Shown here: positions 15,660 to 62,718 of the stretch, piece after piece
Layout of the letters: every line of letters begins with the position of its first letter
How positions within the stretch are numbered: the first letter of the stretch is position 1
Assembly (NCBI GenBank): GCA_016187335.1
Contig: JACPJW010000001.1
Coordinates: 192,547-256,546, forward strand
DNA: 64,000 nt
Source of the DNA: Candidatus Aenigmatarchaeota archaeon
GTDB taxonomy: Archaea; Aenigmatarchaeota; Aenigmatarchaeia; GW2011-AR5
Reading direction: 5' to 3'
Made by a program: the position numbers and the translations under genes
The notes under the pieces: generated by a model
What the model was told of the DNA's origin: nothing
What the model saw: the letters and a program-made list of their open reading frames with translations, nothing else
Databases searched by the model: none

Positions 15660-16133
15660 TGCACATCGCCGTTGTCTTGCAGTTGAGGGTTAGCGCATGT
15701 TTTCGCGATTTTGTGCCTTAGGAAAATTAAAGGCTAGCATTGGCGTAGGAGAGCGTGGGCTGAATAGCTCGCCGAAGCTTGCTACTTACACCCCGCTTCC
15801 ATACCTGGTCGTCTTGCCAGTGCCGACTGCCTATTTTCGAGAGCGGCTTGGGGCTTAGATGCTTTCAGCCCTTATCCGCGTATGGCGTAGCTACCCGGCA
15901 ATGCCTTGTCAGACAACCGGTACACCAGAGGCCACGGAAGGATGTTCCTTTCGTACTTATCCTTCCTTTCTCTCAGGCAAAAGCACCTCCAGCAGATATA
16001 GACCAAACTGGCTCACACCGTTCTGAACCCAGCTAACGTGCCCTTTTAATCTGTGAACTCCAGCACCCTTGGCGGCTGCTGCACCGCCAGGAGAGGACGA
16101 GCCGACAGCGACGCCGCAACGCGCGGGGTCGAT

Positions 16134-16217
16134 TTGTTCTCTGGATTCTGCGATCTAAGTTTGACTACCTCAGGCTATTCCAGCTGAGAATATGTAGACA
16201 ATGTCGCAGATCCGGAT
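16134..16217 (-). other. 23S mini-intron, 84 nt (domain V)
   Basis: It interrupts GAGAGUUCUU | AUCGACCCC, which joined matches the conserved AAGAGCACAUAUCGACCCC. BHB: central helix GUUC/GAAC, bulges UUA and AAA, long inner helix. Not of the two repeat families. Confidence 0.82.
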
Positions 16218-16245
16218 AAGAACTCTCACCCGCCACGACACCATT

Positions 16246-16345
16246 ATAGGGTAAAGTAAACCTATAGCTAGTTGCTATCTAAATCTAACTAAATCTAATT
16301 TGTTAGCAGACCCAGACTGCGACTTAGCTTCCCGGCTTACTTCAT
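16246..16345 (-). other. 23S intron, 100 nt, in the GGGGAUAA region
   Basis: Exons CCCCGGGGAU | AAUGGUGUCG restore the universal GGGGAUAAC-like block of the peptidyl-transferase centre. BHB: central GGGG/CCCU, bulges AUA and AUA, inner helix UGAAGUAA/UUUACUUUA. Confidence 0.85.
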
Positions 16346-17176
16346 ATCCCCGGGGTAGCTTTTTGAGACCGAAGTGCTCATAATCTGAAGCCTTTCGAGC
16401 TTCATTGCGTTCAGCAACCCAAAATTAGCATGAAATTTTCTGACCATCTCCTCGCCGTAAATAGCGAAGGAGTAATTCGATATTGAAGAGCATTTTATTT
16501 CAAGCCCTTCAAGAACCGAAATTATGAACCTCAATGAACTCTCGTCTTTCTGGGTGAAAGTTATCCTCGCCCGCTTGTTCTTGACGTTTGCGGAAGGAAC
16601 ATGGCCTTCCGCGTCGAAGAATCCGGCAATATAGGACTTCTGGATTTCTATATCCGAAGCCCTGATTATCTCCGGAACCGACTTGTGAAGTTTCCCGTCA
16701 ACCATCATACTGATCATGTAGTATAACGGCTTGGACGAGATGTCAAGGTACTTTTCACCTATATGCTTCTGGTACCTTACGTGCGGGGTCACTTCGAAAA
16801 TCCGCTGGAATATATCGCGCAGACTTTCGACCCAAGTTGAGTTTGCAGAATCATAAATCCGCACCCAGTGCTTTCCTTTCGAGCGAATCAAGGAACCGTC
16901 CCGCATTGCGCCTAGAAGATATGCCAATTGCAGTGTTAGTTCTTCTGGCACTTTAACTCGTGTATATGCTGAACCGGTTCCTGATTTGAGGTGCGTTACA
17001 GAACCAATAATTTCAGGATATTTCTCCGCCAGAAAGGAAAGCGGGAAGGAATTCAGTCTTTTCCACTTCCTTATCTTGCTGCTTTCTATGCGAATTTCCA
17101 TCAATCTTGGTTCCAGGATCTCTGCTCTTACCGTAGTGCCGGTTTCCAGAATTCCCTGGAGTAACTTAAATTTCAT
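16337..17176 (-). CDS. LAGLIDADG homing endonuclease in 23S intron
   Basis: A 279-residue protein with two LAGLIDADG helices, LAYLLGAMRDGS (near residue 86) and SYIAGFFDAEGH (near 185), the second carrying the acidic residues that hold metal. Such enzymes cut the intron-less allele and drive intron homing. An N-terminal basic extension of about 80 residues (SKIRKWKRLNSFPLSFL) may bind DNA. The gene lies almost wholly in the intron; its last codons run past the probable 3' splice site into the exon. It resembles the endonuclease at 48569-49180 in 16S (PELAYLLGAMRDxS, FFDAEG). Confidence 0.9.
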   Translation of the reverse strand: MKFKLLQGILETGTTVRAEILEPRLMEIRIESSKIRKWKRLNSFPLSFLAEKYPEIIGSVTHLKSGTGSAYTRVKVPEELTLQLAYLLGAMRDGSLIRSKGKHWVRIYDSANSTWVESLRDIFQRIFEVTPHVRYQKHIGEKYLDISSKPLYYMISMMVDGKLHKSVPEIIRASDIEIQKSYIAGFFDAEGHVPSANVKNKRARITFTQKDESSLRFIISVLEGLEIKCSSISNYSFAIYGEEMVRKFHANFGLLNAMKLERLQIMSTSVSKSYPGDMK

Positions 17177-17183
17177 TGAGGCT
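16366..17183 (-). other. 23S intron with LAGLIDADG gene (boundaries approximate)
   Basis: About 820 nt between exon blocks CUGACC and AAAAGCUACCCC. AAAAAGC is present at both ends, so the exact splice point is ambiguous. GACC/GGUC can form the central helix but a good inner helix was not found by hand. Confidence 0.75.
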
Positions 17184-17361
17184 TTTTGGTCAGAGTAGAA
17201 TATAAGGATTGCTGAACTGGGGTGAACACTTCGCGTTTTCTCATGTCACAGCCAGCCATCCAGGCCAAGCTGCGTATCGCTAGCTCACGCTTTCACGGTT
17301 GGACACCATTCTGTTAGGAGTCCAATCAATGCAGCTTTTGCGCTTGCACTCTACCCTCGAT

Positions 17362-17407
17362 AATCAGGAAACTTTCCGTTTTGATGAAACTTTTCTGAAA
17401 AGTTTCT
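17362..17407 (-). other. 23S type 1 mini-intron, 46 nt
   Basis: Joined exons CCUCGGUCAGAA | AUCGAGGGUAGAG match the archaeal block ending in AAAUCGCGCGUAGAG. BHB: central UCAG/CUGA, bulges AAA and UUA, inner helix GAAACUUU/GGAAAGUUUC. The first AAAAGUUUC and the linker AUCAAAACGG lie between. Confidence 0.9.
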
Positions 17408-17445
17408 TTCTGACCGAGGTGAGCTGCACTTAGAGGGCGTCTGAT

Positions 17446-17488
17446 ATTAAGTCTAGCAGAGCGTTCTTCATTGCTAGCCCTGCAGGAT
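17446..17488 (-). other. 23S probable mini-intron, about 43 nt
   Basis: An extra segment within the hairpin closed by GCGUCUGA/UCAGACGC; archaeal 23S has only about 11 loop bases here. Central helix AAAG/CUUA has one mismatch, so the site is less secure than the others. Confidence 0.55.
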
Positions 17489-17798
17489 ATCTTTTCAGAC
17501 GCGTACCGCCCCAGCCAAACTGCCCATCTGTTACTGTCCCATAGCTATGCTATGGTAAGCAGTAAAGTCGAAAAAGGTCGGTGTTACACTTTCGACTCCA
17601 CGCCACCTTACAGCAGCGCTTCGACGTCTCCCGACTACTCTATACAATCCCGACTTTACCACAACAACAGACTGCAGTAAAGCTCCACGGGGTCTACTCT
17701 TCCCACTGGAGGTCCCTGGCCTAATCACCAGGACAATAGTTTCGCCGAGTTCCAGCCCGGGACAGCGACCACCTCGTTAATCTATCATGCAGGCCAAC

Positions 17799-17926
17799 GT
17801 TTACAGCCCCTTCCTGATATGTTCTTGCGCAGAAAGCGTAAGCTTTCTGGCATCTCAAAGAGCTTTGCTCTTTGCAGATTTCCGCAAGCGCTTTTCTTCC
17901 AAGAAAAGGGCTTCAAGAAAGGGCTT
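17799..17926 (-). other. 23S type 2 intron with nested hairpin pair, 128 nt
   Basis: Exons CCAAUUAAAU | GUUGGCCUGCAUGA restore the 7-base loop of the conserved helix before CCUGCACGA. BHB: central UUAA/GUAA (one A-G), inner AGCCC/GGGCU. It carries CCCUUUUC, GAAAAG, CGCUUGCGG and then a complete paired-hairpin repeat (17830-17872). Confidence 0.82.
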
Positions 17927-17944
17927 ATTTAATTGGCAAGGGAT

Positions 17945-18017
17945 TTAGCGAACCCTCTGTCGCCATGACAGAACGTTGAGTCTCACGCAAGCGCCCTTTG
18001 CAGTGCAAAAGGGGTTT
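17945..18017 (-). other. 23S type 2-like mini-intron, 73 nt
   Basis: Exons AAGGUAGCGUA | AUCCCUUGCC restore AAGGUAGCGAAAUUCCUUG, one of the most conserved 23S blocks. BHB: central AGCG/CGCU, bulges UAA and AAA, inner AACCC/GGGUU. Contains CCCUUUUGC/GCAAAGGG and linker CGCUUGCG. Confidence 0.88.
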
Positions 18018-18039
18018 TACGCTACCTTAAGACCCTCAT

Positions 18040-18081
18040 CACCGACGAAGCACTGTCATCTGATCAGACGTGCTTCAGTCT
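18040..18081 (-). other. 23S probable mini-intron, about 42 nt
   Basis: Extra bases between CCCUAACUCU and AUGAGGGUCUUAAGG, where the conserved form is GUAACUAUAACGGUCCUAAGG. It contains GAAGCAC/GUGCUUC. Exact splice bases not resolved. Confidence 0.6.
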
Positions 18082-18673
18082 AGAGTTAGGGCCGGCCTAC
18101 AGCGGGGCTTAGCCCGGTTGAAACCAGGTTTGACACACCACTAGTGGCCACGACTCACTGACCATAGAAAGCCTTTCGACTTGTCGGTCAGTTACGTTTT
18201 TGTTAAACAGTCGGGTGGCCCTTGTCACTGCGACCTGCTTGTCCCCAAGCAGGCATGCGTTCTACCGAAGATACCGCACTAATTTGCCGAATTCCCTGGG
18301 CTGGATTATCTCGAACACCTTCGCCTTCTCGGCGAGGGGCACCTGTGTCGGTTATTGGTACGAGCAGCCCACACCGTAACCTGCCTGCTTTTTTAAGAGC
18401 TCCGGGAATCGCCCGAACTTCCCTAAAGGGAAGCCGTTCGCATCTTCCTCAGGTTCTCGCCATGATGACACTCCCCCGAGTTCAATGCTTAAGCATGGCG
18501 ACGGCCATGCTCAGGATATCCCGAAGCGTTAGCGGCAGGATAAGTATCGGCTGGTTCCGGAATATTAACCGGATTTCCTTTCCCGCGCGTCTTCCTAAGA
18601 GCACGGTTAGGATCGACTGACCCCCAGAAGATAAACTTTACTGGGGAACCCTTGCCCCTCAGGTGGTAGGGAA

Positions 18674-18986
18674 TTGAGTGCAAGAAGAAGGTGAATTAGC
18701 GACTTTCACGAAGTGCTTTAATGAAATAAATACCTAATGTTAATCCGGATACAAGCTTCGCTGCACCGGTCCAAATAAAAGAAGGGTTACCGGTTGCTCG
18801 ATAAGCCATAATATCGGTAGCTCCGTCTGCTAAAAGACTTACGCTACCGACTGGAATTCCTATAGCAGTAACGTATGGATTCATTTCCTGTGAAATTCTT
18901 TCAATTCTGTCTGGAGGTTTTTGAAATTCCATATGTCACTACTAATAGATGAGAATTTAAAGCCTATCATTCGCTTTTTGGAGCTT
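18674..18986 (-). other. 23S insertion of about 313 nt carrying a protein gene
   Basis: The insertion separates GCGGGAA-like and UUCCCUACC exon arms. GAAGAAG (18984-18990 on the sense strand) and CUUCUUC (18684-18690) could form an inner helix, but no strict BHB was found. Most of it is the membrane-protein gene below with its own promoter. Confidence 0.7.
18696..18932 (-). CDS. Small membrane protein encoded inside 23S, 78 aa
   Basis: Starts MEFQKPPDRIERISQEMNPY, then two hydrophobic segments (about residues 20-36 and 52-72, SFIWTGAAKLVSGLTLGIYF) and a basic end KALRESR. ATG 18932 has a TATA-like CTTTAAATTC about 26 bases upstream on the sense strand, so it can be transcribed leaderless from its own promoter. 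It has no endonuclease features. Its presence in an rRNA insertion is unexpected; either it rode in with an element or the intron tolerates cargo. Confidence 0.65.
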   Translation of the reverse strand: MEFQKPPDRIERISQEMNPYVTAIGIPVGSVSLLADGATDIMAYRATGNPSFIWTGAAKLVSGLTLGIYFIKALRESR

Positions 18987-19183
18987 CTTCCCGCATTTCT
19001 CGCCCTACTAATGCTACTCCCACCAGGATCCTCTTTGCTGCAAGGTCCACACTTCCTCACGGAAACGCTTCTGCCCTCGCAGCACGCCTCCTTACCACTT
19101 GCGATTGCTCACAAGTCCGCAGTATCGGTGGTTTCCTTAGCCCCGTCCATTTTCTCCGCCTTGACTCTCGATGGGTCCGCTAT

Positions 19184-19347
19184 TTCGCGGAAAGCCCCTT
19201 TTTCTTGTAAGAAAAAGTCCCTTGGGTTCAAAAAGAACTTTAACTCGCTTCGCTCGGATATTATTTTTAATAATATAGCGAGCATTAGCGAGCCTTGTGT
19301 CTTTCTTTTCCCAAGGGTTTTCTTTCTTCAGAAAGAAAAGGCTTTCT
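19184..19347 (-). other. 23S intron, 164 nt
   Basis: Exons AACGCGUA | AUAGCGGACC restore the conserved GCGUAAUAGC. BHB is perfect: central CGCG/CGCG, bulges UAA and AAA, inner GAAAGCC/GGCUUUC. Inside are stacked hairpins (UUUUCUUUC/GAAAGAAAA, CCCUUGGG/CCCAAGGG, GCUCGCUA/UAGCGAGC-type repeats). Confidence 0.9.
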
Positions 19348-19660
19348 TACGCGTTGTTTAAATGGTGGCTGCTTCTAAGCCAACATCCCCATTGTCTGAG
19401 AATCAGGACCAGATTCAGTGACACTTAGAAAACACTTTGGGACCTTAACTGCAGTCCGGGTTCGTTCCCTCTCGGATACCAGAATTACTCCGGCACCCTC
19501 ACTCCCGCTCACGCGATAACGGATTCGGAGTTTGACAAGGCAGGTGGGGATCTCTCCCCTTGGCTGTCTAATCAGTGCTCTACCCCGTTATCTGCTAAGA
19601 GCGAGGCTGTCCTGAGAGACATTTCAGGAGGAACCAGCTATCACCAGATTCGATTGGCTT

Positions 19661-19729
19661 TTGGTGTTCGCGAATAGCATACTGAATCTGCGAACAGCAA
19701 ATTCAGAATAGCTTTAGCTATTCTCGAAT
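19661..19729 (-). other. 23S mini-intron, 69 nt
   Basis: Exons GGGGUGAA | AAGCCAAUCGAAU restore GGGGUGAAAGGCCAAUC. BHB: central GGUG/CACC, bulges AAA and AAA, inner UUCG plus GAAUAGC pairing with GCUAUUC plus CGAA. Confidence 0.88.
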
Positions 19730-19835
19730 TTCACCCCTAACCCCAGGTCACCCGAAGGGTTTGGACCACAACCGGTAACAGGCCTCCACCCGCCTTTCGG
19801 CAGGCTTCGCCTTGCCCAGGGCTAGATCATCTGGT

Positions 19836-20738
19836 CGCCCGGTCAGAGAATGAGTTTTATGAGGTTTGTATGAATATCAGATTTTGTTTTGCCCAATTCG
19901 CTTGGCTTTAAGCCATATGAATTGGCAGCGAATTTCAGAAGTTGTGATTTTGGAATTCCCTTCCATAATCCATTTCCGCTAATTTTCACGCCTTCAACAA
20001 AGCCGATTTCCCTTTCAAATTTCTTTATGTTCTCAGGTTTTCTAAGCAACACTGCATCTTTCAGCATTGTTGGCTTGTACCCAAGTTTTTCAAGCAACCC
20101 GAAGTATTGTTTCCTAAGATTTGGATGTTCTGAATAAAGTTTTACGCATCTGTCGAAACGGAAACCGTATCTTGCCTTTCCGATATTGAAGATTACAGTT
20201 CCATCTCCGGTGAATGCGTATCTTAGAAATTGCTTTCCGAGTTCAGAGTTGCTTAAGATGAACTCCGGAATTATTGTTCCCGGATATTTGTTTTCTGCTT
20301 TGTTGTAGGCGAGCGTTCTGTAAGACGGCGAATAACTAATGAGCTCTGCGGCAGCCTTTCTGCTTATTCCACTCTTGACTTCCCATGAACCTTTGTAGAT
20401 TCTTTTTCGAAGTTTAAGATGGAAAATCTCGAAGATGAGCCTTTCAAATTCCGCAACAAGTTCATTGGAGTTAGAAGTGAAAGAAATACTCCATAATCCC
20501 GATTTCTTGTTGCACCAAAGGCTGCCGTCTGTAATCAGAAGCCCTATTAGTTGAGCCATCTTGCCTTGTCTTTCATCAATCTCATTAATTTCGGTTTTGC
20601 CGAAATTTTGATTAATGAAATTTAATTTCATGCTTGTTATTAAGGCGAAGCGGGCTTATCTTGCTTTCGTGTCGAAGACCGAAAGAAAGAATATGTCCCG
20701 CTGAGCCAGATAACAAACCTCTAACTCACTCCCCGACT
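19836..20738 (-). other. 23S intron with LAGLIDADG gene, 903 nt
   Basis: Exons AGACCCGAA | ACCAGAUGAUCUAGCCC restore the conserved GACCCGAAACCGGGUGAUCUA block. BHB: central CCCG/CGGG, bulges AAA and CGA, inner GUC/GAC followed by GAGUGAG/CUCAUUC. Confidence 0.92.
19843..20631 (-). CDS. LAGLIDADG homing endonuclease in 23S intron
   Basis: A 262-residue protein with motifs QLIGLLITDGS (near residue 27) and FLRYAFTGDGT (near 134), each with the catalytic Asp. It is divergent from the other two endonucleases here, in spacing and in its short second motif, so it was probably acquired independently. The ORF nearly fills the intron and stays within it. Confidence 0.9.
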   Translation of the reverse strand: MKLNFINQNFGKTEINEIDERQGKMAQLIGLLITDGSLWCNKKSGLWSISFTSNSNELVAEFERLIFEIFHLKLRKRIYKGSWEVKSGISRKAAAELISYSPSYRTLAYNKAENKYPGTIIPEFILSNSELGKQFLRYAFTGDGTVIFNIGKARYGFRFDRCVKLYSEHPNLRKQYFGLLEKLGYKPTMLKDAVLLRKPENIKKFEREIGFVEGVKISGNGLWKGIPKSQLLKFAANSYGLKPSELGKTKSDIHTNLIKLIL

Positions 20739-21482
20739 TTCGGGTCTTATTCCAGTGACTTCCGCGCTTTCACACGGGGCGCCTCGCTGCCTGCGCGCGC
20801 TCGCTTTCGCTGCGGTTCCCTTAGTTAACCTTGCCACTAGAATAAACTCCCTGGCCCGTTTTTCAAAACGGACACCGCTTTTGTTTCTCTTGCGAGAACG
20901 TTAGGCGGCTAACTGTAGCTGCCAGGTTTCAGGTTCTTTTCAGCACCTATTACGGTTGCTTTTCAGCTTTCCGTCGCCGTACTAATGCGCTATCGGACTT
21001 GACGAATATTTAGGATTGGGTCTGAATGCGACCCGCGTTCCGACTCCAAATCCGAGGAATCGTACTCTGGATACCCGCCGTTGCACTTCCTGCCTTCCCT
21101 TACGCGGCTATCACGCTGTGTCGCGCCCCTTTCCAGGGGTCTTCGGGTCAGCAGGCAAGAGCAGGCACGGGTCCAAACACCACATTGCCCCGCACTCGTC
21201 GCGCAGGGCTTCGGTTTGTCCTGTTCCCTTTTCACTCGCCGTTACTGGGGGAATCGAATTTCTTTCTTTTCCTGCCCTTACTAAAATGTTTTAATTTTGG
21301 GCGTTCGCCCTTCAGAACAGACTTCCGCATCTTTCAGATGCGGGATTTATCTCTGAAGTTGATGCCTATCGGCATTGGGCAATCTCCGGTTCAAAGGCTG
21401 CATGCGCCTACCCGGAGCTTATCGCAGCTTGCCACAACCTTCGTCGCATGTCAAGCCAGGCCATCCTCCTGACAGCTTGGGA

Positions 21483-21519
21483 GCTAGCTATCTTCTTTCC
21501 TAAGGCGTTCGCCGCTAAC
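21483..21519 (-). other. 5' half of the 23S processing stem
   Basis: On the sense strand GTTAGCG, GCCTTAGGAAA and TAGCTAGC stand just before the 23S 5' end. Perfect complements TTTCCTAAGGC (15715-15725), CGCTAAC (15689-15695) and GCTAGC (15733-15738) follow its 3' end. The stem would loop out the whole 5.7-kb 23S region for pre-rRNA cutting. Confidence 0.85.
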
Positions 21520-42128: not shown

Positions 42129-42347
42129 ATGATATGCGCTCTTTGCCCGAAAGGTAAAAGAGAAGTTATGGATGACAGCACTAACGTGGACCCTCGCGGC
42201 AGAAACCATATTCATGTCTTGCAGGTAAACAAGAAAGGCAAGATCGTCTGGGGAATGTGCTATCTTGACAAGTTAGTGCCTTTCAGCAGGTTTGAGGATT
42301 TTACTGCTGATGTTTCCTGTCTGATTAAAGAAACCAAGAAAAAATAA
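42129..42347 (+). CDS. Small Cys-containing protein, 72 aa
   Basis: Begins MICALCPKGKREV (CxxC) and has two further Cys. Strand-rich middle (NHIHVLQVNKKGKIVWGMCY). Its stop codon abuts the 3' end of the tRNA-Ala half on the other strand. Confidence 0.55.
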   Translation: MICALCPKGKREVMDDSTNVDPRGRNHIHVLQVNKKGKIVWGMCYLDKLVPFSRFEDFTADVSCLIKETKKK

Positions 42348-42438
42348 TGGACTGGTCGGGACTTTCACCAACTTTGCTTCCTCTTTTGATCAAACTTTGG
42401 AGCAGCAAAGTTTGCTTTGAACCCGAAGCCTCCTGGCT
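42348..42438 (-). tRNA. tRNA-Ala 3' half with a T-loop intron (split tRNA or truncated copy)
   Basis: Sense order: AGCCAGGAGGCU, T-stem UCGGG, loop UUCAAA, intron (42415-42362, 54 nt), U, CCCGA, acceptor CCAGUCC and A73. The intron has a BHB with central UUCA/UGAA, bulges AAG and AGU, and a type 1 core (AAACUUUGC, CAAAGUUUG, AUCAAAAG, GCAAAGUU). No 5' half is upstream; the ATPase gene ends 13 bases away. Compared with the intact tRNA-Ala, the T-stem differs but still pairs (UCGGG/CCCGA against CUGGG/CCCAG), which argues for a functional RNA rather than debris. Confidence 0.7.
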
Positions 42439-42450
42439 ATAATGTCGCAT

Positions 42451-44010: not shown

Positions 44011-44310
44011 GGACTGGCTGGGATTTTCAGAACTTTTCACCGTTTTCCTCGAAGAACATCAGTTCTTCGGGATCTCGGAGAACTATCGTTCTCCACAGAT
44101 GATCAAACTTTTGTGAAAAGTTCGTTTGAACCCAGAGCCTCCTGCTATCTTGTTTGCCTCTTTTGATCGAACTTTGGAGTAGCAAAGTTCGTTGCAAAGC
44201 AGGCGATCTTCCTTCTCCGAACCCTTTTTGCTTCGCAAAAATCGTTCACGGAAAAACTTCTTTCCGTAGACGCTTTCTTTTTAAGAAAGGGTCTGTTGAT
44301 CTACCAGCCC
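44011..44310 (-). tRNA. tRNA-Ala(UGC) with three introns
   Basis: Exons 44310-44293, 44211-44193, 44147-44126 and 44024-44011 join to a 73-nt tRNA: acceptor GGGCUGG/CCAGUCC with the alanine identity pair G3-U70, D-stem GAUC/GAUC with GG in the loop, anticodon loop UUUGCAA, T-loop UUCAAAU. Intron 1 (D-loop, 81 nt, 44212-44292) is type 2 with further hairpins; its splice bases are inferred from the mature fold only. Intron 2 (position 37/38, 45 nt, 44148-44192): central UUUG/CAAG, bulges CAA and AUA, hairpin CGAACUUUG. Intron 3 (position 59/60, 101 nt, 44025-44125): perfect BHB, central UUCA/UGAA, inner helix of 11 bp, carrying a paired-hairpin repeat (44051-44095). Confidence 0.88.
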
Positions 44311-47015: not shown

Positions 47016-47131
47016 TCTCATGGCCCTCTTTTGATGAAACTTTTTTGAAAAGTTTCAGAGGAAAGCACACTGACTGTCGCAGAACCCTTTCGGATTCTTT
47101 TGATAAAACTTTTCTTGAAAGAAAAGTTTTT
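47016..47131 (-). repeat. Two solo type 1 elements directly after 16S
   Basis: Sense: immediately after CACCUCCU comes AAAACUUUUC, GAAAAGUUUU, AUCAAAAG; 60 bases on, GAAACUUUUC, AAAAAGUUUC, AUCAAAAGAGG closed by CCUCU/AGAGG. They keep the hairpin and AUCAAAA part but lack exon joins, so they are not introns of 16S. Confidence 0.75.
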
Positions 47132-47248
47132 AGGAGGTGATCCAGCCGCACGTTCCCGTACGGCTACCTTGTTACGACTTAGCCCTCCTTGCAGACAATT
47201 GATTCGACTTATTCAGCATAAGCCTCACCAAAAGTCCACTCGGATGGC

Positions 47249-47280
<32 letters not shown>

Positions 47281-47294
47281 CATTCAGCGAAAGA

Positions 47295-47484
47295 TTCCAC
47301 GATTATGAGATCATCATAGTGCTGCTTCTACTCGACCAAAGACATCCGCCCATACTTTTAATCACCAGACCGCTACGGATTTCTTTCCGTAGACGCTTTC
47401 TTTTTAAGAAAGGGTCTTCATAGTCAAGCACTTCTTCTGTCTTTGATTTTGTAGCGCCAAAAAATCATTTGGATCTCACATCCA
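47295..47484 (-). other. 16S intron 10, 190 nt, with nested type 2 core
   Basis: Exons GUAAGCGAAGGUCAUCA | UCUUUCGCUGAAUGCG rebuild the conserved hairpin before the decoding helix. BHB: outer GCGAAGG/CUUUCGC, central UCAU/GUGG, bulges CAU and AAU. A 37-nt type 2 core (47381-47417) inside is identical to one in tRNA-Ala (44258-44294), so an element has inserted into this intron. Confidence 0.85.
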
Positions 47485-47843
47485 TGATGACCTTCGCTTA
47501 CTAGGGATTCCGGCTTCACGTGGGCGAATTGCAGCCCACGATCTGAACTAGGCGCCGGTTTGAGAGATTGGCTTCACCTCACGGTGTTGCATCCCATTGT
47601 CCGACGCATTGTAGGCCGCGTGTAGCCCCGGAAATTTAGGCCATACTGACCTGCCGTAGACCGCTCCTTCCTCTGGCTTAGCGCCAGCGGTCCCGCTAAA
47701 GTGCATGCCCTGCGTACAGGACATTCGCAACTAGCGGCACGGGTCTCACTCGTTTCGTGACTTAACACGACACTTCACAGCACGAGCTGACGACGGCCAT
47801 GCAGCACTTCTCAGTTTGTTAGGTAACCCCTTTAGAGTGACCC

Positions 47844-48416
47844 TCATTCTACTGTCTTCCCGGGTGAGGTCTCCAGAGAGGAATCCTCATATTTCCAAAG
47901 AATGCGTTTGCCTTCATTCTTTCTTGCCACACTACGCGCGGATTCAAGGTCGCGCAATGTTTCCCTTATTGTGCTTGGCATCAATCTTAATCCAAGGCAC
48001 AATTCTCCTATGCTCCACCACTTATCATTTTTTCTGATCAACGCAACTATCTTCTCTTTCGTTGAAGCTTTGTTGCGCATGAAGCCGCCTTTCATCCCTT
48101 CTCTTTCCAAGAGAAGCTTCGCCCATTGATTCTTAATCGGTTCCGCAAATTCCCCTGCAATGGAATAAATCTCCCTGAAAGCATTCCTATGCAGCTTGAA
48201 GCCGATGTTTTCTCTTTTGACGAACTTTTTGCTTGCCCAGCCATGCGCTTTGCAGACCTCAAAAATAGTGTTAAGCTGATTTCTGTTTCTGCTTGACTGA
48301 ACAAGCACAGGCGACTCTTCAGCTATAAAGCTGAATTCAAACTCGATTAGTGGAAGGAGTATAGAAGCTGTAAGTTTTTGCCTTTCTTTGCTCGCTCGTA
48401 AACACTTATCATCCAT
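47844..48416 (-). CDS. 16S intron-encoded protein with winged-helix C terminus
   Basis: 190 residues. The middle (WASKKFVKRENIGFKLHRNAF, then IYSIAG and KLLLEREG) and the C-terminal helix-turn-helix (STKEKIVALIRKNDKWWSIGEL, then TIRETLRDLES) look like a DNA-binding protein. A clear LAGLIDADG motif is absent, so it may be a degenerate endonuclease or a maturase-like protein. It begins in the intron and its last nine codons run into the 16S exon. Confidence 0.7.
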   Translation of the reverse strand: MDDKCLRASKERQKLTASILLPLIEFEFSFIAEESPVLVQSSRNRNQLNTIFEVCKAHGWASKKFVKRENIGFKLHRNAFREIYSIAGEFAEPIKNQWAKLLLEREGMKGGFMRNKASTKEKIVALIRKNDKWWSIGELCLGLRLMPSTIRETLRDLESARSVARKNEGKRILWKYEDSSLETSPGKTVE

Positions 48417-48469
48417 AGTACTGTATACTTTGGATGATTTATTGGTTTCCGTACTCGAGTATTCCTCTT
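47871..48469 (-). other. 16S intron 9, 599 nt
   Basis: Exons CAACGCCAGGA | ACCUCACC restore the conserved CAACGCGAAGAACCUUACC block. BHB perfect: central CCAG/CUGG, bulges GAA and AGA, inner AGAGGAAU/AUUCCUCU. Confidence 0.92.
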
Positions 48470-48489
48470 TCCTGGCGTTGAATCCAATT

Positions 48490-48529
48490 TTCGGCCCAAG
48501 CCAATGATATACGTTTCACTGAACTCGGT
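48490..48529 (-). other. 16S intron 8, 40 nt
   Basis: Exons GCGGUUU | AAUUGG restore GGUUUAAUUGG. BHB: central CGGU/GCCG (one U-G), bulges UUA and AAA, inner CCGAG/CUUGG. Only 40 nt, with no repeat-family core. Confidence 0.9.
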
Positions 48530-48568
48530 AAACCGCAGCCTCCACCCCTGGTAGTGCTCCCCCGCCAA

Positions 48569-49180
48569 TTAGGGGAAAGTAATCCCATCATTTAGCAGCT
48601 TCAATCTGAGCTGCTTATCCTTGTGCCAACTTCCGATGTTTTTGCAGAAGTATAGAAGATTGTTCTTCCTTGTCAGCCTGAATTCCCAGACATTACCGCA
48701 AAAGGTAATGTTTGTTGGCTGGCAACTTTGATCAATCAAAACCTGTCTAATGAATTCCAAAGATTCCCTGTTTTTCTGGCTGAACGAGATGTATTTCTGT
48801 TTCGCTGTATCTGGTTTCTTTGGAAGTCCTCCTTCTGCATCAAAGAATCCTTTCAAATAGTGAATTTGAATTTTCACTTTCTGTTCCTTTATGCATTTTG
48901 GAGTATCCCAGAATTCCTGCGGTGTTTCGAAATCGGATATATCGAGAATTTTTTCAACATAGCTTCTTCCGTTAATCCTCAGTATTTCCGTTCCGTTTGC
49001 ATGTTTTGTTATGGTGCCGCGAGCTTCAAACTCTTTATGGAAAAGAGTTTGCAAAAGGCGTAACCATGATGTCTCTCTTTGTGCTATTTTAATTTCGTAG
49101 TTTTTTCCTTTCCTGACATCTATGGATGCGTCTCTCATAGCACCTAACAGATACGCAAGTTCTGGGCTGACAGGCTTCAC
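48569..49180 (-). CDS. LAGLIDADG homing endonuclease in 16S intron
   Basis: 203 residues with LAYLLGAMRDAS (near residue 8) and YLKGFFDAEGG (near 108), both with catalytic acids. No N-terminal extension. Related to the 23S endonuclease at 16337-17176, so one homing enzyme lineage has reached both rRNAs. Its stop codon lies exactly at the 3' splice region of the intron. Confidence 0.92.
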   Translation of the reverse strand: MKPVSPELAYLLGAMRDASIDVRKGKNYEIKIAQRETSWLRLLQTLFHKEFEARGTITKHANGTEILRINGRSYVEKILDISDFETPQEFWDTPKCIKEQKVKIQIHYLKGFFDAEGGLPKKPDTAKQKYISFSQKNRESLEFIRQVLIDQSCQPTNITFCGNVWEFRLTRKNNLLYFCKNIGSWHKDKQLRLKLLNDGITFP

Positions 49181-49232
49181 TCTATAACTTTGGCAGCAGG
49201 GATATTTAAGTGTGGTATCGGGGTTACTTTCT
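48569..49232 (-). other. 16S intron 7, 664 nt, between A919 and U920 (E. coli)
   Basis: Exons ACUUAAGGGAA | UUGGCGGGGG. BHB perfect: central AGGG/CCCU, bulges AAA and AAU, inner GAAAGUAA/UUACUUUC. The site falls in the 907-926 universal primer region and equals the known archaeal intron position 919. Confidence 0.95.
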
Positions 49233-49362
49233 TTCCCTTAAGTTTCAGCCTTGCGGCCGTAATCCCCAGGCGGCCCGTTTAACGCCTTCGCTTCGGCACC
49301 ACGGATCCACGAAGGATTCGTGACACCAAACGGGCAACGTTTACAGCTAGGACTACCGGGGT

Positions 49363-49444
49363 CTTTAGGACCCTTTTGCGATTTTATTCGCGGTAGCGTG
49401 ATTTCCGTAGACGCTTTTACGCGCTTGCATGCGTAAAAGGGTCT
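49363..49444 (-). other. 16S intron 6, 82 nt, type 2, between 793 and 794
   Basis: Exons GGAUUAGAU | ACCCCGGUAGUCC restore the universal 806R primer site. BHB perfect: central UUAG/CUAA, bulges AUA and AGA, inner GACCCUUUU/AAAAGGGUC. Contains GCGUAAAAG and CGUCUACGG. Confidence 0.95.
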
Positions 49445-49455
49445 ATCTAATCCCG

Positions 49456-49488
49456 AATGAACTCGACTAAGATTTTCGTCTTAGTTCG
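49456..49488 (-). other. 16S intron 5, about 33 nt
   Basis: Extra hairpin AACUAAGA/UCUUAGU between GGGAGCGAAU and CGGGAUUAG, where archaeal 16S reads GGAGCAAACGGGAUUAG. Exact splice bases not resolved; no strict BHB found. Confidence 0.6.
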
Positions 49489-49544
49489 ATTCGCTCCCCT
49501 AGCTTTCGTCCCTCACCGTCGGACCCGTTCCAGCCAAGCGCCTT

Positions 49545-49588
49545 ACGTGGAAACTTTTCCGTTTTGATTGAATTTTTTGAAAAGTTCA
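49545..49588 (-). other. 16S intron 4, 44 nt, type 1
   Basis: Exons CUGUGGCG | AAGGCGC restore the universal GUGGCGAAGGCG. BHB perfect: central GUGG/CCAC, bulges CGU and GUA, inner GAACUUUUC/GGAAAAGUUU. Linker AAUCAAAACGG present. Confidence 0.95.
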
Positions 49589-49792
49589 CGCCACAGGTGG
49601 TCCCCTACGGATTAAAAGATTTTACCCTTACCCGTAGAGTACCCTTGGCCTCTCCCGGTCCCAAGCCCGATAGTATCTCCAGCAAGCCTTACAGTTTGCT
49701 GCAAGATTTCACCAAAGACACATCGAGCCGGCTACGGACGCTTCAGGCCCAATAAACGTGACTACCCCTCGTGGCGCGGTTATTACCGCGGC

Positions 49793-49843
49793 ATCCAGAT
49801 CCTTTTCCGTCAACGCTTTTGCGTCTTCAGACGTAAAAGGGTT
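49793..49843 (-). other. 16S intron 3, 51 nt, type 2, in the 530 loop
   Basis: Exons GCCAGCC | GCCGCGGUAA restore the most conserved 16S block (between 523 and 524). BHB: central CCAG/CUGG, bulges CCA and AUG, inner ACCCUUUU/AAAAGGAU. Contains GCAAAAG and CGUUGACGG. Confidence 0.95.
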
Positions 49844-49882
49844 GGCTGGCAACCGTCTTGCCCACCACTTATTCCTCCACCT

Positions 49883-49937
49883 ATGTAATCCTTTCTTCCG
49901 TTTCTTTCGCAAGCGTTTTCTTTTCGAAAGAAAAGGC
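49883..49937 (-). other. 16S intron 2, 55 nt, type 2
   Basis: Exons CUCCACUGUAAAA | AGGUGGAGGAAUAAG match the helix-17 hairpin GUGUAAAAAG seen in methanogens. Central GUAA/UUAC, bulges AAG and AUA, inner CCUUUC/GAAAGG; one unpaired A makes the BHB slightly relaxed. Linker CGCUUGCG. Confidence 0.85.
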
Positions 49938-50004
49938 TTTTACAGTGGAGAAAAGACAGCGCTAAGCGCTGCCACTCAGGGTTCCCTTGTCAGGCTTTCA
50001 CCCA

Positions 50005-50054
50005 GTTTGCGAACTTTTCAGTTCCGTTTTGATGGAACTTTTCTGAAAAGTTCC
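50005..50054 (-). other. 16S intron 1, 50 nt, type 1
   Basis: Exons ACCUUUGCAA | UGGGUGAAAGCC restore the conserved CAAUGGGCGAAAGCC. BHB perfect: central UUGC/GCAA, bulges AAG and ACU, inner GAACUUUUCAG/CUGAAAAGUUC (11 bp). Internal GAAAAGUUCC and AUCAAAACGG. Confidence 0.95.
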
Positions 50055-50060
50055 TTGCAA

Positions 50061-50093
<33 letters not shown>

Positions 50094-50407
50094 CGTTCAT
50101 GTCTCAGAACGCATCTCCGGGCTATCGCTCTCACGACCCGTACGGATTACAGCCTTGTTGAGCAATTATCTCAACAACAAGCTAATCCGCCGCAGTCCCA
50201 TCGTTCAGTGCATTGCTGCTTTCAGCGAAGATGCCTTCCAGCAATTATCGCCTATCGGGTATTATTCCCACTTTCGCAGGATTATCCCCGTCTGAACGGC
50301 AGGTTAACTACGTGTTACTGAGCAGTGCGACGAGGTCTTGCACCTCACGTCTCGCATGGCTTAGCCGAACCCTGATAAAGGTAGTCTCCGGCGGGATCAA
50401 CCGGAAT

Positions 50408-53327: not shown

Positions 53328-53345
53328 TATTTTTGATGTTTTTTG

Positions 53346-53386
53346 ATGTTTTTTGATTAAACTTTTTTCGAAAAAGTTTAGGAGGT
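53346..53386 (+). promoter_or_regulatory. Type 1-like hairpin abutting the atpK ribosome site
   Basis: TTTTTTGATG repeats lead to the hairpin TAAACTTTTTTC/GAAAAAGTTTA (53358-53380), followed at once by GGAGGT (53381-53386) and ATG 53395. In the mRNA the element is in the reverse orientation to the rRNA introns. It may tune translation or stability of the c-subunit message. Confidence 0.6.
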
Positions 53387-53394
53387 AGAAAAAA

Positions 53395-53610
53395 ATGGTT
53401 GAAACAATAGCGGCGGTCGGGGCGGCGGTTGCAATAGGCGTGACGGCTCTGGCTGCGGCATGGGCGGAGAAAGAAATAGGCACAGCGGCCATAGGCGCGC
53501 TGGCAGAGAAAGAAGAGCTATTCAGCAAGGTGCTGATACTTACGGTAATACCTGAAACTATCGTAATTTTCGGCCTTGTTGTTGCGCTCCAGATATTGAG
53601 CGCTGCCTGA
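53395..53610 (+). CDS. atpK: A-type ATP synthase subunit K (c)
   Basis: 71 residues, two membrane helices. The ion-binding Glu is in the second helix (LTVIPETIVIFGLVVALQIL). Single-hairpin type, not duplicated. This proteolipid forms the rotor ring and is needed in more copies than its neighbours. Confidence 0.93.
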   Translation: MVETIAAVGAAVAIGVTALAAAWAEKEIGTAAIGALAEKEELFSKVLILTVIPETIVIFGLVVALQILSAA

Positions 53611-53692
53611 TGCGGCAACAAGCTTTTTGTTGTCCGCATTCTGAAAACCGGAGGTTTTCAGAAATCTCAGGAGTATCTGCTTTCTGCAGATT
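53611..53692 (+). repeat. Hairpins between atpK and atpE
   Basis: TGCGGCAACAA/TTGTTGTCCGCA at 53611-53639, then CTGAAAACC/GGTTTTCAG (53641-53661), spacer AAATCTCA, then ATCTGC/GCAGAT. The last two form a paired-hairpin repeat. Together they could stabilise or end part of the atpK message. Confidence 0.65.
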
Positions 53693-61589: not shown

Positions 61590-61658
61590 AAAAACACCAG
61601 AAAATATTCTTGAGGATAAAAATAAATTGTTATTTTTGGTCAAACTTTCCTTCTTTGA

Positions 61659-61683
61659 TTAAACTTTCTTTTAAGAAAGTTTA
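61659..61683 (-). repeat. Solo type 1 element after tRNA-Leu
   Basis: Sense: directly after the tRNA 3' end, TAAACTTTC, loop, GAAAGTTTA then ATCAAAG. Same layout as after 16S. Confidence 0.7.
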
Positions 61684-61854
61684 TGCGGGAGACGAGATTC
61701 GAACTCGCGAAGCGAATCGTCACCTTTTCCGTGCACGCTTTTGCACAGCAAAAGGGTGCTAACGCACTACCCGTTTGCGAACCTTCCCTTTTGATTGAAC
61801 TTTTGGGAAAAGTTCACCTCAAGGTAGCCCCTTTGGCCGCTTGGGTACCCCCGC
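61684..61854 (-). tRNA. tRNA-Leu(GAG) with two introns
   Basis: Exons 61854-61817, 61772-61760 and 61714-61684 give an 82-nt type II tRNA: acceptor GCGGGGG/CUCCCGC with A73, D-stem CCC/GGG, anticodon loop UUGAGGG (GAG), variable arm GCG UUA CGC, T-arm GCGAG UUCGAAU CUCGU. Intron 1 (37/38, 44 nt, 61773-61816) is type 1: central UUGA/GCAA (one A-G), inner GAACUUUUCCC/GGGAAGGUUC, linker AUCAAAAGGG. Intron 2 (variable arm, about 45 nt, 61715-61759) is type 2: CACCCUUUU, GCAAAAG, CGUGCACGG, AAAAGGUG; its splice sites are less certain. TATA-like GCTTAAATAA lies upstream. Confidence 0.88.
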
Positions 61855-61925
61855 AATGCATTAAAATTATTTAAGCTCCCTTTGGATGCAAAAGTATTTT
61901 ATGGCAAAATACAAAAGTATGATTA

Positions 61926-62270
61926 ATGAGCGATTTAACCGCTACATTAGAACCGCCTTATAGGATGAAAGAGCCTGAAAAAAAAATAGAAGCGAAATTC
62001 CCGTATGAAACCGTGATTGGGGGCAAAACAGTAACGGTTGTGGGGGGAACAGTGCTGGGTGAACATGGTGGATACAGAAGGGTAAGATTGTATATAAGAG
62101 GGTGGCATGATATTGACTCTCTCGCAGTTATGCATAAAGGTCATACTGGGGAAGAAACTGTAATTGAAAGATATGTATTAGTACCTGTTCTGACTGTTAA
62201 CGTATTGCCTGTGCTGCCTGTTGAATGCCCTGTTATTGGAAAATTATACGAACCTGCTGGCAGAAGATAA
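61926..62270 (+). CDS. Hypothetical protein, 114 aa
   Basis: A beta-rich, Val/Gly-rich protein (TVTVVGGTVLGEHGGYRRVR). ATG is about 27 bases from a TATA-like ATTTTATGG. No signal peptide, no recognisable family. Confidence 0.55.
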   Translation: MSDLTATLEPPYRMKEPEKKIEAKFPYETVIGGKTVTVVGGTVLGEHGGYRRVRLYIRGWHDIDSLAVMHKGHTGEETVIERYVLVPVLTVNVLPVLPVECPVIGKLYEPAGRR

Positions 62271-62311
62271 AAACATACGTAATAAAAACAGAAATCATGA
62301 GCAAATTTTTC

Positions 62312-62455
62312 TCAGCACTTCTCGCACATCGTGCCGCAGTGCATGCCTGATTTGCTTGATTTGTAGCCGCAGTGCACGCACATGTACATATCCTTCGGCT
62401 TCGCTGCCTTTCTTGATGCTTTCCTTGCTTTGGATGCCTTTCTTCTCTTTGCCAC
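62312..62455 (-). CDS. Small basic zinc-ribbon protein, 47 aa
   Basis: Basic Ala/Lys N terminus (AKRRKASKARKASRKAAK) then CVHCGYKSSKSGMHCGTMC and a final Cys: two zinc knuckles. GTG start 62455 is preceded by AAGGTGAT at correct spacing. Likely binds nucleic acid. Confidence 0.75.
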   Translation of the reverse strand: MAKRRKASKARKASRKAAKPKDMYMCVHCGYKSSKSGMHCGTMCEKC

Positions 62456-62538
62456 CAGAATCACCTTGAAATAAAATTGGAAGAAATCTTCTTAAGCGGG
62501 AATTTCAAGGAAAGGTATCACTCGGAAGATGTGAAAAA

Positions 62539-62718
62539 TGCTCCCGCCGGGATTTGAATGCCCGGATCCTTTCAATCTCTAAAGGATCTCCCGGGTCTCC
62601 GGCTTTCTTTGATATCATTACAAAGCGTTTCTGCTTTGCTCTAACCTTTCAAAGATCGGCTGATTTTTCATGCCGTCGCGAAAGGCCGGAATCCTTGGCC
62701 GGTCTAGACTACGGGAGC
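62539..62718 (-). tRNA. tRNA-Glu(UUC) with two introns
   Basis: Exons 62718-62679, 62604-62590 and 62558-62539 give a 75-nt tRNA: acceptor GCUCCCG/CGGGAGC, anticodon stem CCGGC/GCCGG with loop CUUUCGA (UUC), T-arm CCGGG UUCAAAU CCCGG. Intron 1 (37/38, 74 nt, 62605-62678): central CUUU/AAAG, bulges CGC and AAA. Intron 2 (53/54, 31 nt, 62559-62589): perfect BHB, central CCCG/CGGG, bulges GGA and CAU, inner GAUCCUUU/AAAGGAUC. Neither intron has the type 1 or type 2 core. Confidence 0.92.

What the first reader, a model, noticed from the sequence alone, without database searches (positions are those of the whole stretch)
15739..62718. Mass invasion of stable RNAs by tiny spliceable introns
Seen directly: 16S is 3276 nt and 23S about 5744 nt; three tRNAs carry two or three insertions each and a tRNA half carries one. 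For most insertions a BHB motif (4-bp central helix, two 3-nt bulges) can be drawn and cutting after the second bulge base restores the universal exon sequence. In 16S the ten insertions sum to 1808 nt, leaving 1468 nt. Archaeal rRNA and tRNA introns cut by the BHB endonuclease are known, but about 30 in 64 kb, most of them 31-130 nt and from shared sequence families, is exceptional and suggests an expanding mobile intron system.
Basis: partly seen in the sequence, partly recalled or inferred. Interest (0 to 1): 0.95.

Follow-up and report, generated by a model that had tools for sequence, protein, structure and literature searches.

The report
Dispersed hairpin repeats become archaeal introns
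An uncultured archaeon has about thirty mostly tiny, probably removable inserts in its ribosomal and transfer RNA genes in one 64-kb stretch, and about half of them belong to short hairpin repeats that are also scattered between its ordinary genes, which hints at how such introns arise.

Summary
The window is from an Aenigmatarchaeota (DPANN) genome. Its 16S carries 10 insertions and its 23S 12; three tRNAs and a tRNA 3' half carry 8 more. 18 of 22 rRNA insertions have a bulge-helix-bulge with 4 of 4 central pairs (swapped introns: 21%). A congener independently confirms two tRNA junctions by empty sites and has an extra intron that this genome lacks. So these are very likely genuine BHB introns that are gained and lost within a genus; splicing itself was not tested. 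15 of the 30 introns (13 of the 23 mini-introns) hold one of two hairpin repeats that are dispersed genome-wide (88 and 29 exact copies; reversed-pattern control 0). Family B lies mainly in structural RNAs (23 of 29). Family A lies mostly elsewhere, often against stop codons, and those copies show no BHB excess. Family B occurs in 58 of 145 genomes of the phylum. My reading: a tiny palindromic repeat spreads at DNA level and becomes an intron where it lands in a structural RNA; its mover is unknown. Puzzle: the only splicing endonuclease found lacks the catalytic lysine.

The parts
47132..50407 (-). 16S rRNA gene with ten introns
   Evidence: Rfam RF01959, 1072.6 bits; alignment
15729..21492 (-). 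23S rRNA gene with twelve introns
   Evidence: Rfam RF02540, 1886.1 bits; alignments
50005..50054 (-). 16S intron 1, 50 nt, family A
   Evidence: BHB central 4/4, score 24
49882..49938 (-). 16S intron 2, 57 nt, family B (looser search)
   Evidence: BHB 4/4, score 20
49793..49843 (-). 16S intron 3, 51 nt, family B
   Evidence: BHB 4/4, score 18
49545..49588 (-). 16S intron 4, 44 nt, family A variant
   Evidence: BHB 4/4, score 24
49457..49490 (-). 16S intron 5, 34 nt
   Evidence: BHB 4/4, score 18
49363..49444 (-). 16S intron 6, 82 nt, family B
   Evidence: BHB 4/4, score 22
48569..49232 (-). 16S intron 7, 664 nt, holds a LAGLIDADG ORF (48569-49180)
   Evidence: BHB 4/4, score 22; PF14528 E 1.5e-9
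48490..48529 (-). 16S intron 8, 40 nt
   Evidence: BHB 4/4, score 14 at the exon-restoring cut; a cut shifted by 6 nt scores 15
47871..48469 (-). 16S intron 9, 599 nt, with a 190-aa ORF (47844-48416) that runs into the exon
   Evidence: BHB 4/4, score 22; no Pfam match at E<=0.01
47295..47484 (-). 16S intron 10, 190 nt, holds a family B core identical over 37 nt to 44258-44294
   Evidence: BHB 4/4, score 16; repeat D3
19836..20738 (-). 23S intron 1, 903 nt, holds a LAGLIDADG ORF (19843-20631)
   Evidence: BHB 4/4, score 21; PF14528 E 1.1e-9
19661..19729 (-). 23S intron 2, 69 nt
   Evidence: BHB 4/4, score 15
19184..19347 (-). 23S intron 3, 164 nt, family B-like
   Evidence: BHB 4/4, score 23
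18673..18996 (-). 23S intron 4, 324 nt
   Evidence: BHB 3/4, score 22
18038..18081 (-). 23S intron 5, 44 nt
   Evidence: BHB 3/4, score 19
17945..18017 (-). 23S intron 6, 73 nt, family B-like
   Evidence: BHB 4/4, score 23
17799..17926 (-). 23S intron 7, 128 nt, holds a family B core
   Evidence: BHB 3/4, score 18
17446..17488 (-). 23S intron 8, 43 nt
   Evidence: BHB 3/4, score 15
17362..17407 (-). 23S intron 9, 46 nt, family A
   Evidence: BHB 4/4, score 24
16362..17237 (-). 23S intron 10, 876 nt; LAGLIDADG ORF 16337-17176 reads through the next 16-nt exon into intron 11
   Evidence: BHB 4/4, score 15, tied with a cut one base off on each side; PF14528 E 8.2e-7
16246..16345 (-). 23S intron 11, 100 nt
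   Evidence: BHB 4/4, score 16
16134..16217 (-). 23S intron 12, 84 nt
   Evidence: BHB 4/4, score 18; two neighbouring cuts score 18 and 16
61773..61816 (-). tRNA-Leu(GAG) intron 1 (37/38), 44 nt, family A; absent from G001
   Evidence: central 3/4, score 19, tied with a cut one base off; empty site; spliced tRNA fits the template
61716..61758 (-). tRNA-Leu(GAG) intron 2 (variable arm), 43 nt, family B
   Evidence: BHB 4/4, score 24
62605..62678 (-). tRNA-Glu(UUC) anticodon-loop intron, 74 nt
   Evidence: BHB 4/4, score 22
62559..62589 (-). tRNA-Glu(UUC) T-loop intron, 31 nt; absent from G001
   Evidence: BHB 4/4, score 23, tied with a cut one base off; exact empty site in the syntenic gene of G001
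44213..44294 (-). tRNA-Ala(UGC) D-loop intron, 82 nt, family B; no canonical BHB
   Evidence: cut set by the uninterrupted D loop of tRNA-Ala(GGC); no canonical BHB there
44147..44192 (-). tRNA-Ala(UGC) anticodon-loop intron, 46 nt, family A subtype
   Evidence: central 4/4 and 5 outer pairs but score 13; a cut that does not restore the tRNA scores 16
44024..44124 (-). tRNA-Ala(UGC) T-loop intron, 101 nt
   Evidence: BHB 4/4, score 25
42362..42415 (-). T-loop intron of a tRNA 3' half, 54 nt, family A subtype
   Evidence: BHB 4/4, score 22
13165..13582 (-). RNase P RNA (ends by my reading) with a family B-like copy in its 3' part (13258-13229); candidate intron, cut not defined
   Evidence: RF00373 at 13525-13252, 48.4 bits, below the gathering score of 84; hairpin search
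47099..47130 (-). family A copy directly after the 16S 3' end, not an intron by the BHB test
47030..47056 (-). second family A copy in the 16S trailer
61654..61683 (-). family A copy directly after tRNA-Leu
53352..53380 (-). family A copy outside the RNA genes
   Evidence: not inside an ORF kept, though a 160-aa ORF (53157-53639) overlaps it

Best explanation
The 30 insertions are archaeal BHB introns, cut by EndA and joined by RtcB. About half (15 of 30; 13 of the 23 mini-introns) hold one of two tiny palindromic repeats that are dispersed over the whole genome. Family A is a hairpin, NN-AACTTT..AAAGTT-N'N', followed by ATCAAA. Family B is a long hairpin with one C.C mismatch, followed by NCGGAAA. 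The repeats spread at the DNA level by an unknown route into spacers, hairpin loops and structural RNA genes. Copies in spacers are tolerated as they are. Copies in tRNA, rRNA, SRP RNA and perhaps RNase P RNA survive mainly where the transcript can form a BHB: a third arm pairs with the first arm, and the intron's 3' end pairs with exon 1. They then persist as introns. SHOWN by sequence: the insertions, the BHB excess, the genome-wide families, their covarying arms, no BHB excess in copies elsewhere, and reciprocal presence and absence in a congener. INFERRED: that splicing occurs, that movement is at DNA level, and the direction from spacer to intron. UNKNOWN: the moving enzyme, and how the third arm and exon match arise. 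The large introns with LAGLIDADG ORFs probably move by ordinary homing.
For: 4/4 central pairs in 18 of 22 rRNA introns against 21% for swapped introns. Reciprocal intron polymorphism with exact junctions in the syntenic tRNA-Glu, and an empty site in tRNA-Leu, of G001. 88 copies of A and 29 of B in the genome, reversed-pattern controls 0 in this genome. Arms covary: 84 of 88 (shuffled 13.4) and 27 of 29 (shuffled 5.3). BHB score against shuffled downstream sequence: copies in structural RNAs median z 1.75 (A, n=17) and 1.72 (B, n=23); other copies -0.01 (A, n=60), -0.31 (B, n=6), trailers and flanks 0.14 (n=11). 5 of 17 family A copies in structural RNAs have an identical core outside them. 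Tandem and nested copies. At least three copies outside RNA genes are cleanly absent from G001. One EndA and one RtcB gene.
Against: No RNA data. EndA lacks the catalytic lysine, whose alanine substitution is reported to abolish cleavage in two archaeal enzymes (PMC12397907, passages read). No moving enzyme: Y1 transposase was not found in this genome, and no other transposase family was searched. No general target-site duplication. How a repeat acquires its third arm and exon match is not explained. Only 7 of 17 (A) and 11 of 23 (B) structural-RNA copies pass p<=0.05 on their own, and 6 of 60 other A copies do too. Context labels were read by eye. 15 of the 30 window introns belong to neither family even by the looser search (19 by the strict patterns). 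Related copies persist at the same place in G001 in at least two cases, so not all are recent.
Confidence: 0.6

Rival explanations
1. True intron transposition at the RNA level: an excised intron is reverse-spliced into another RNA, copied to DNA and recombined. Spacer copies are old, decayed insertions into mRNA.
For: Identical family cores at unrelated sites; all 12 pattern copies in the window's RNA genes are in sense orientation, none antisense (6 of the 7 genes checked hold copies); intron transposition is proposed for Thermoproteales tRNAs with mechanism unknown (PMC4090602, passages).
Against: Copies outside RNA genes keep a paired hairpin but no BHB excess, the opposite of what decayed introns should keep; tandem 27-30-nt units and nesting in hairpin loops. 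Reverse transcriptase was not searched for.
Confidence: 0.2
2. The hairpins are functional RNA elements (3' UTR, processing or stability signals) kept by selection after stop codons and RNA 3' ends; resemblance to intron hairpins reflects shared binding by a protein, not mobility.
For: 19 of 60 copies of A outside RNA genes lie within 15 nt after a same-strand stop codon, while 5 of 60 end within 15 nt of an opposite-strand stop; copies directly follow 16S and several tRNAs; related elements persist at the same place in G001 at C2:401782 and C2:520265.
Against: Clean absence at three orthologous places in a congener; nested and tandem copies; copy number 88 here, 24 in the half-complete congener and 0-6 in the other relatives searched; one copy lies inside a 384-aa ORF.
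Confidence: 0.15
3. Classical homing: LAGLIDADG endonucleases spread the introns, and mini-introns are deletion remnants.
For: Three of four large-intron ORFs match LAGLIDADG models; co-conversion of a small hairpin intron is reported in Thermoproteales (PMC4496867, passages).
Against: Homing goes to the same site; families A and B sit at many unrelated sites, including tRNAs, SRP RNA and spacers.
Confidence: 0.04
4. The insertions are expansion segments or artefacts and stay in the ribosome.
For: No RNA data exist here.
Against: Insertions interrupt conserved stretches; BHB excess; exact empty sites in tRNAs; all 14 other relatives' 16S genes compared have insertions relative to L006.
Confidence: 0.02

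Closest known systems
Archaeal BHB introns of rRNA and tRNA (Thermoproteales)
   Same: BHB at junctions; small hairpin introns under 50 nt beside LAGLIDADG introns in 16S (PMC4496867, passages); several introns per tRNA at non-canonical positions (PMC4090602, passages)
   Different: Other phylum; about half of the introns hold repeats that are also dispersed outside RNA genes; SRP RNA also interrupted
[quoted passage not shown]
   Same: Near-identical introns in different tRNAs; mechanism unknown (seen only as cited in PMC4090602)
   Different: There described for tRNA introns; here the family also lies outside structural RNAs, without BHB excess
tRNA introns of wetland Asgard archaea
   Same: Most tRNAs interrupted, many introns at odd positions (PMC11291895, passages)
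   Different: No dispersed repeat family is mentioned in the passages read
Eukaryotic introners (mobile spliceosomal introns)
   Same: A dispersed repeat family that becomes introns at unrelated sites
   Different: Different splicing machinery; no transposase or target-site duplication found here; comparison rests on general knowledge and a mention in PMC11782384 (passages)
REP/RAYT and IS200/IS605-derived palindromes
   Same: Short dispersed hairpins in spacers (recalled)
   Different: No Y1 transposase found in this genome; copies lie as introns in RNA genes
Archaeal group I introns in rRNA
   Same: rRNA hosts; one is listed for an Aenigmarchaeota LSU gene (PMC6125680, passages)
   Different: No group I match in this window

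Membership tests
Archaeal BHB introns | BHB motif at both junctions | tested here: met
   rRNA: 4/4 central pairs in 18 of 22, null 21%; tRNA introns: BHB in most, Ala D loop not, Ala anticodon loop weak
Archaeal BHB introns | Removal restores the conserved exon | tested here: met
   alignments, exact empty sites in G001, 9 tRNAs rebuilt by splicing
Archaeal BHB introns | Splicing endonuclease EndA and ligase RtcB | tested here: inconclusive
   both genes present but EndA lacks the catalytic lysine
Archaeal BHB introns | Excision in vivo, circular intron RNA | not testable with these tools
   no RNA reads available
LAGLIDADG homing introns | Intron-encoded homing endonuclease | tested here: met
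   for 3 of 4 large-intron ORFs; the mini-introns are too short to encode one
Group I or group II introns | Catalytic RNA core | tested here: not met
   no such Rfam family at gathering score or E<=10
REP/RAYT, IS200/IS605-derived repeats | Y1 transposase in the genome | tested here: not met
   PF01797: 0 in own genome (91% complete) and G001; 8 of 30 genomes searched have it
Introner-like intron-generating repeats | One repeat family both dispersed and spliceable at unrelated sites | tested here: inconclusive
   dispersal and shared cores shown; spliceability inferred from BHB only
Introner-like intron-generating repeats | Transposition mechanism (transposase, target-site duplication) | tested here: inconclusive
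   no general duplication; only Y1 was searched as transposase

The most novel reading that the evidence does not exclude
Archaeal 'introners': a palindromic repeat of about 30 nt spreads through an archaeal phylum at the DNA level and manufactures new BHB introns in rRNA, tRNA and SRP RNA (perhaps RNase P RNA), spliced by an endonuclease whose catalytic lysine has been replaced in its whole lineage, perhaps by lysines of a loop before the catalytic histidine.
Probability: 0.35. Interest if true: 0.92.

Novelty: new variant of a known kind. Interest (0 to 1): 0.78.

Why it matters
How archaeal introns arise and jump between genes is an open question (a 2014 review calls the mechanism of tRNA intron transposition unknown; PMC4090602, passages). 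A repeat family that sits outside RNA genes without splice signals and in structural RNAs with them may show the before and after of intron birth in one genome, and a congener shows gains and losses. It also makes a splicing endonuclease without its lysine a direct biochemical test case, and helps to explain why tRNA detection fails in this genome (ARAGORN found no tRNA in the window; Rfam's tRNA model passes its cut-off at 12 places in the whole genome).

Tried and rejected
1. My first BHB scorer had the central helix on the wrong side and gave poor scores; corrected, and only onward is used. 2. Three 23S length differences first taken as insertions are variable-region length. In one search the L022 reference was cut at the wrong place, L023 and L024 were in the wrong orientation, and L002 and L004 were too (seen); the calls rest on L006 for 16S and on L022, L025, L026, L027 for 23S. 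3. The test 'at least 3 of 4 central pairs' does not discriminate (71% for swapped introns). 4. MAFFT alignments of the two repeat families were poor because arm lengths vary; no covariance model was built and patterns were used instead. 5. A first tRNA rebuild ranked by BHB score gave mixed results and was replaced by a tRNA template (10 rows, of which I reject one, in the 16S trailer). 6. Y1 transposase as mover: not found here. 7. Target-site duplication: none in general. 8. Spacer copies as mRNA introns: no BHB excess. 9. Viral carriage: 14 and 3 contigs of 2.9 million matched; 4 of the 14 obey the arm rule; not followed up. 10. Trans-split tRNA-Ala: no clear 5' half. 11. Literature: the listings of ten searches (two searches returned none) showed no paper on BHB introns of Aenigmatarchaeota, on BHB introns in RNase P and SRP RNA, or on an EndA without its lysine; the library is open-access only, and six papers were looked at in passages. 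12. In one search the partial 16S matches L016, L017, L018 and L021 were left out.

Full report
WHERE IT IS. The window is G000:C2:192547-256546 of a 1.01-Mb archaeal genome, 90.8% complete. Its EndA protein is closest to Candidatus Aenigmatarchaeota (DPANN); the nearest named relative is NC_groundwater_1120, 90% identical. I take that genome to be handle G001: its EndA contig C87 and the named contig have the same length, 21,184 bases.

THE OBSERVATION. Rfam places 16S at 50407-47132 and 23S at 21492-15729, both minus and about 26 kb apart. Alignment to relatives gives ten 16S insertions that sum to 1808 nt and, after correction, twelve in 23S. tRNA-Leu(GAG) has two, tRNA-Glu(UUC) two, tRNA-Ala(UGC) three and a tRNA 3' half one. 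ARAGORN finds no tRNA in the window. Of the 30 insertions 23 are 31-130 nt.

BHB. I scored the motif as a 4-bp helix between exon 1 and the intron's 3' end, 3-nt bulges on both sides, and flanking helices (this geometry is recalled). Allowing cuts to move by 3 nt and change length by 2 nt, 18 of 22 rRNA introns have 4 of 4 central pairs. With introns swapped between sites the mean is 21% and the highest of 1000 shuffles 48%. Three of the 22 starting cuts came from the BHB scan itself; without them it is 15 of 19 against 22%, at most 58%. All 22 have at least 3 pairs, but swapped introns reach 71% there, so that says little. The Ala D-loop insertion has no canonical BHB, and the Ala anticodon-loop one is weak.

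INDEPENDENT JUNCTIONS. In G001 the syntenic tRNA-Glu lacks the 31-nt T-loop intron at exactly the predicted cut and carries instead a family B-like intron in the D loop that is absent here; both exon joins are exact. The tRNA-Leu of G001 lacks the 44-nt family A intron at exactly the BHB cut, while the rest, including intron 2, is identical over 142 nt. Caution: this Leu match lies at the end of a contig (4544-4685 of 4685) and could come from a close strain through the assembly; the Glu comparison is internal.

ACROSS THE PHYLUM. Against the intron-free 16S of L006, all 14 other relatives' 16S genes compared had 2-17 insertions of at least 20 nt, and the window's had 10 (four partial genes were left out, and small insertions may include variable-region length). 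None of those 14 holds family A or B by the patterns used.

TWO FAMILIES, GENOME-WIDE. Family A: NN-AACTTT-loop-AAAGTT-N'N'-ATCAAA. Family B: XYZ-CCC-TTT..AAA-GCG-Z'Y'X'-NCGGAAA. Exact pattern matches in this genome: A 88; B 39 rows, 29 after I removed overlapping rows; the reversed patterns give 0. Over all 30 genomes the reversed control gave one match (G012). The two bases before the A core pair with the two before ATCAAA in 84 of 88 (shuffled mean 13.4, maximum 25), and the three before the B core pair with the three after GCG in 27 of 29 (shuffled mean 5.3, maximum 13). The patterns left these positions free, so this is real covariation. A has 24 matches in G001 (56% complete) and 0-6 in the other relatives searched. 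B, with a slightly stricter pattern, occurs in 58 of 145 genomes drawn from the phylum, controls 0.

SHARE OF THE WINDOW'S INTRONS. By the strict patterns 11 of the 30 introns hold a copy (5 A, 6 B); by the looser hairpin search, 15 of 30 do, and 13 of the 23 mini-introns. The other half are unrelated or too diverged.

WHERE THE COPIES LIE. By my reading and of the window, B lies in structural RNAs in 23 of 29 cases (one of them, in RNase P RNA, breaks the arm rule and may be chance). A lies in structural RNAs in 17 of 88, in their leaders, trailers or close flanks in 11, and elsewhere in 60. Of the 60, 19 start within 15 nt after a same-strand stop codon, 5 end within 15 nt of an opposite-strand stop, and 14 lie within a called ORF of at least 80 aa on either strand, some of them probably spurious ORFs. 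Some copies are tandem (unit 27-30 nt) or nested in the loop of another copy. In the RNA genes of the window all 12 pattern copies are in sense orientation. SRP RNA holds a family B insertion of about 120 nt with a BHB. RNase P RNA holds a B-like copy, with no cut that I could define.

INTRON OR REPEAT. I scored the best BHB around each copy against shuffled downstream sequence. Copies in structural RNAs: median z 1.75 (A, 17) and 1.72 (B, 23). Copies elsewhere: -0.01 (A, 60), -0.31 (B, 6), 0.14 (trailers and flanks, 11). On their own 7 of 17 and 11 of 23 structural copies pass p<=0.05, and so do 6 of 60 others, so the difference is between groups. Four core sequences are shared exactly between structural-RNA and other copies, involving 5 of the 17. 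Of 29 copies compared with G001, 4 gave no alignment, at least 3 (C2:892627, C2:99467, C2:407951) show a clean empty site, at least 2 (C2:401782, C2:520265) have a related element at the same place in G001, and most others lie in spacers too diverged or cut to judge.

tRNAs. A splice-and-fit search around the clusters rebuilt nine tRNAs with 1-3 introns each (Ile-GAT, Pro-CGG, Ser-TGA, Cys-GCA, Arg-TCG, Ser-GGA, Leu-GAG, Ser-GCT, Arg-TCT) and one false row. tRNA-Ala(GGC) lies elsewhere with one 73-nt intron and an uninterrupted D loop, which sets the cut of the Ala(UGC) D-loop intron.

MACHINERY. One EndA and one RtcB are found here. Aligned to M. jannaschii EndA, Tyr115 and His125 (numbering recalled) are kept in 64 of 64 sequences, but Lys156 is Ala in 56, Thr in 5 and Ser in 1 of the 62 proteins of this group (this genome and 61 loci, nearly all titled Aenigmatarchaeota or archaeon), with Lys only in two outside loci. 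The search finds close relatives only, so this is the lineage of this protein; one relative, G022, has a second, longer member of the family whose residues I did not check. Alanine at this lysine is reported to abolish cleavage in two archaeal enzymes (PMC12397907, passages read). Lysines that M. jannaschii lacks are kept nearby: K143 in an insertion before the histidine (62 of 62) and a basic residue at 150 (62 of 62). That paper describes loops with a conserved lysine near the active site in enzymes of broad specificity, so replacement by a loop lysine is a testable guess.

MECHANISM. Best reading: the hairpin repeats move at DNA level into spacers, loops and RNA genes; RNA-gene copies persist mainly where they can form a BHB, as introns. 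The mover is unknown: no Y1 transposase here, no general target-site duplication. RNA-level intron transposition is weakened by the lack of BHB excess in other copies, but not excluded. LAGLIDADG homing explains only the large introns.

KNOWN AND NEW. BHB introns of 16S, 23S and tRNA, small hairpin introns and intron-rich tRNAs are known (PMC4496867, PMC4090602, PMC11291895, passages read). A review states that the mechanism of tRNA intron transposition is unknown (PMC4090602). The tie to a repeat family dispersed outside RNA genes, SRP RNA as a further host, and a lysine-less EndA did not appear in the listings of ten searches of an open-access library.

Noticed in passing
G000:C2:410532-410810 (L001 1474-2082 minus): EndA lacks the catalytic lysine in all 62 sequences of its lineage (Ala 56, Thr 5, Ser 1); Tyr and His kept. 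Residues invariant there but not in M. jannaschii include K143, R169 (also in one outside locus) and W183.
   Followed up: partly
L140 1161-1551 (G000:C2:74695-75085): SRP RNA with an insertion of about 120 nt of family B and a BHB.
   Followed up: partly
window 13165-13582 minus: RNase P RNA interrupted by a family B-like copy; a second B pattern match at 13473-13437 does not obey the arm rule and may be chance.
   Followed up: partly
window 16337-17176 minus: LAGLIDADG ORF reads from 23S intron 10 through the 16-nt exon into intron 11 and stops there.
   Followed up: no
window 42347-42440 minus: tRNA 3' half whose exons equal the 3' part of tRNA-Ala(GGC) at C1:28537, with a T-loop intron the full gene lacks; partial copy or half of a split tRNA.
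   Followed up: partly
G000:C2:738999-739023: Family A copy flanked by an exact 16-nt repeat of a tRNA 5' part (GCCGAAGTGGCTCAGT), as if by duplication at insertion.
   Followed up: partly
G000:C2:888712-888736: Family A copy inside a 384-aa ORF whose frame stays open across it.
   Followed up: no
L250, L255, L256, L257: Four IMG/VR viral contigs carry family B copies that obey the arm rule; possible viruses of this phylum.
   Followed up: no
window 44258-44294 and 47381-47417: 37 nt identical between the tRNA-Ala D-loop intron and the 16S 190-nt intron.
   Followed up: yes
G022:C50:15116-15592: A second EndA-family protein (418-aa frame, 72.8 bits) in one relative; possibly a two-domain type with a separate history.
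   Followed up: no
window 15729-21492 and 47132-50407: 16S and 23S are unlinked, about 26 kb apart, same strand.
   Followed up: no
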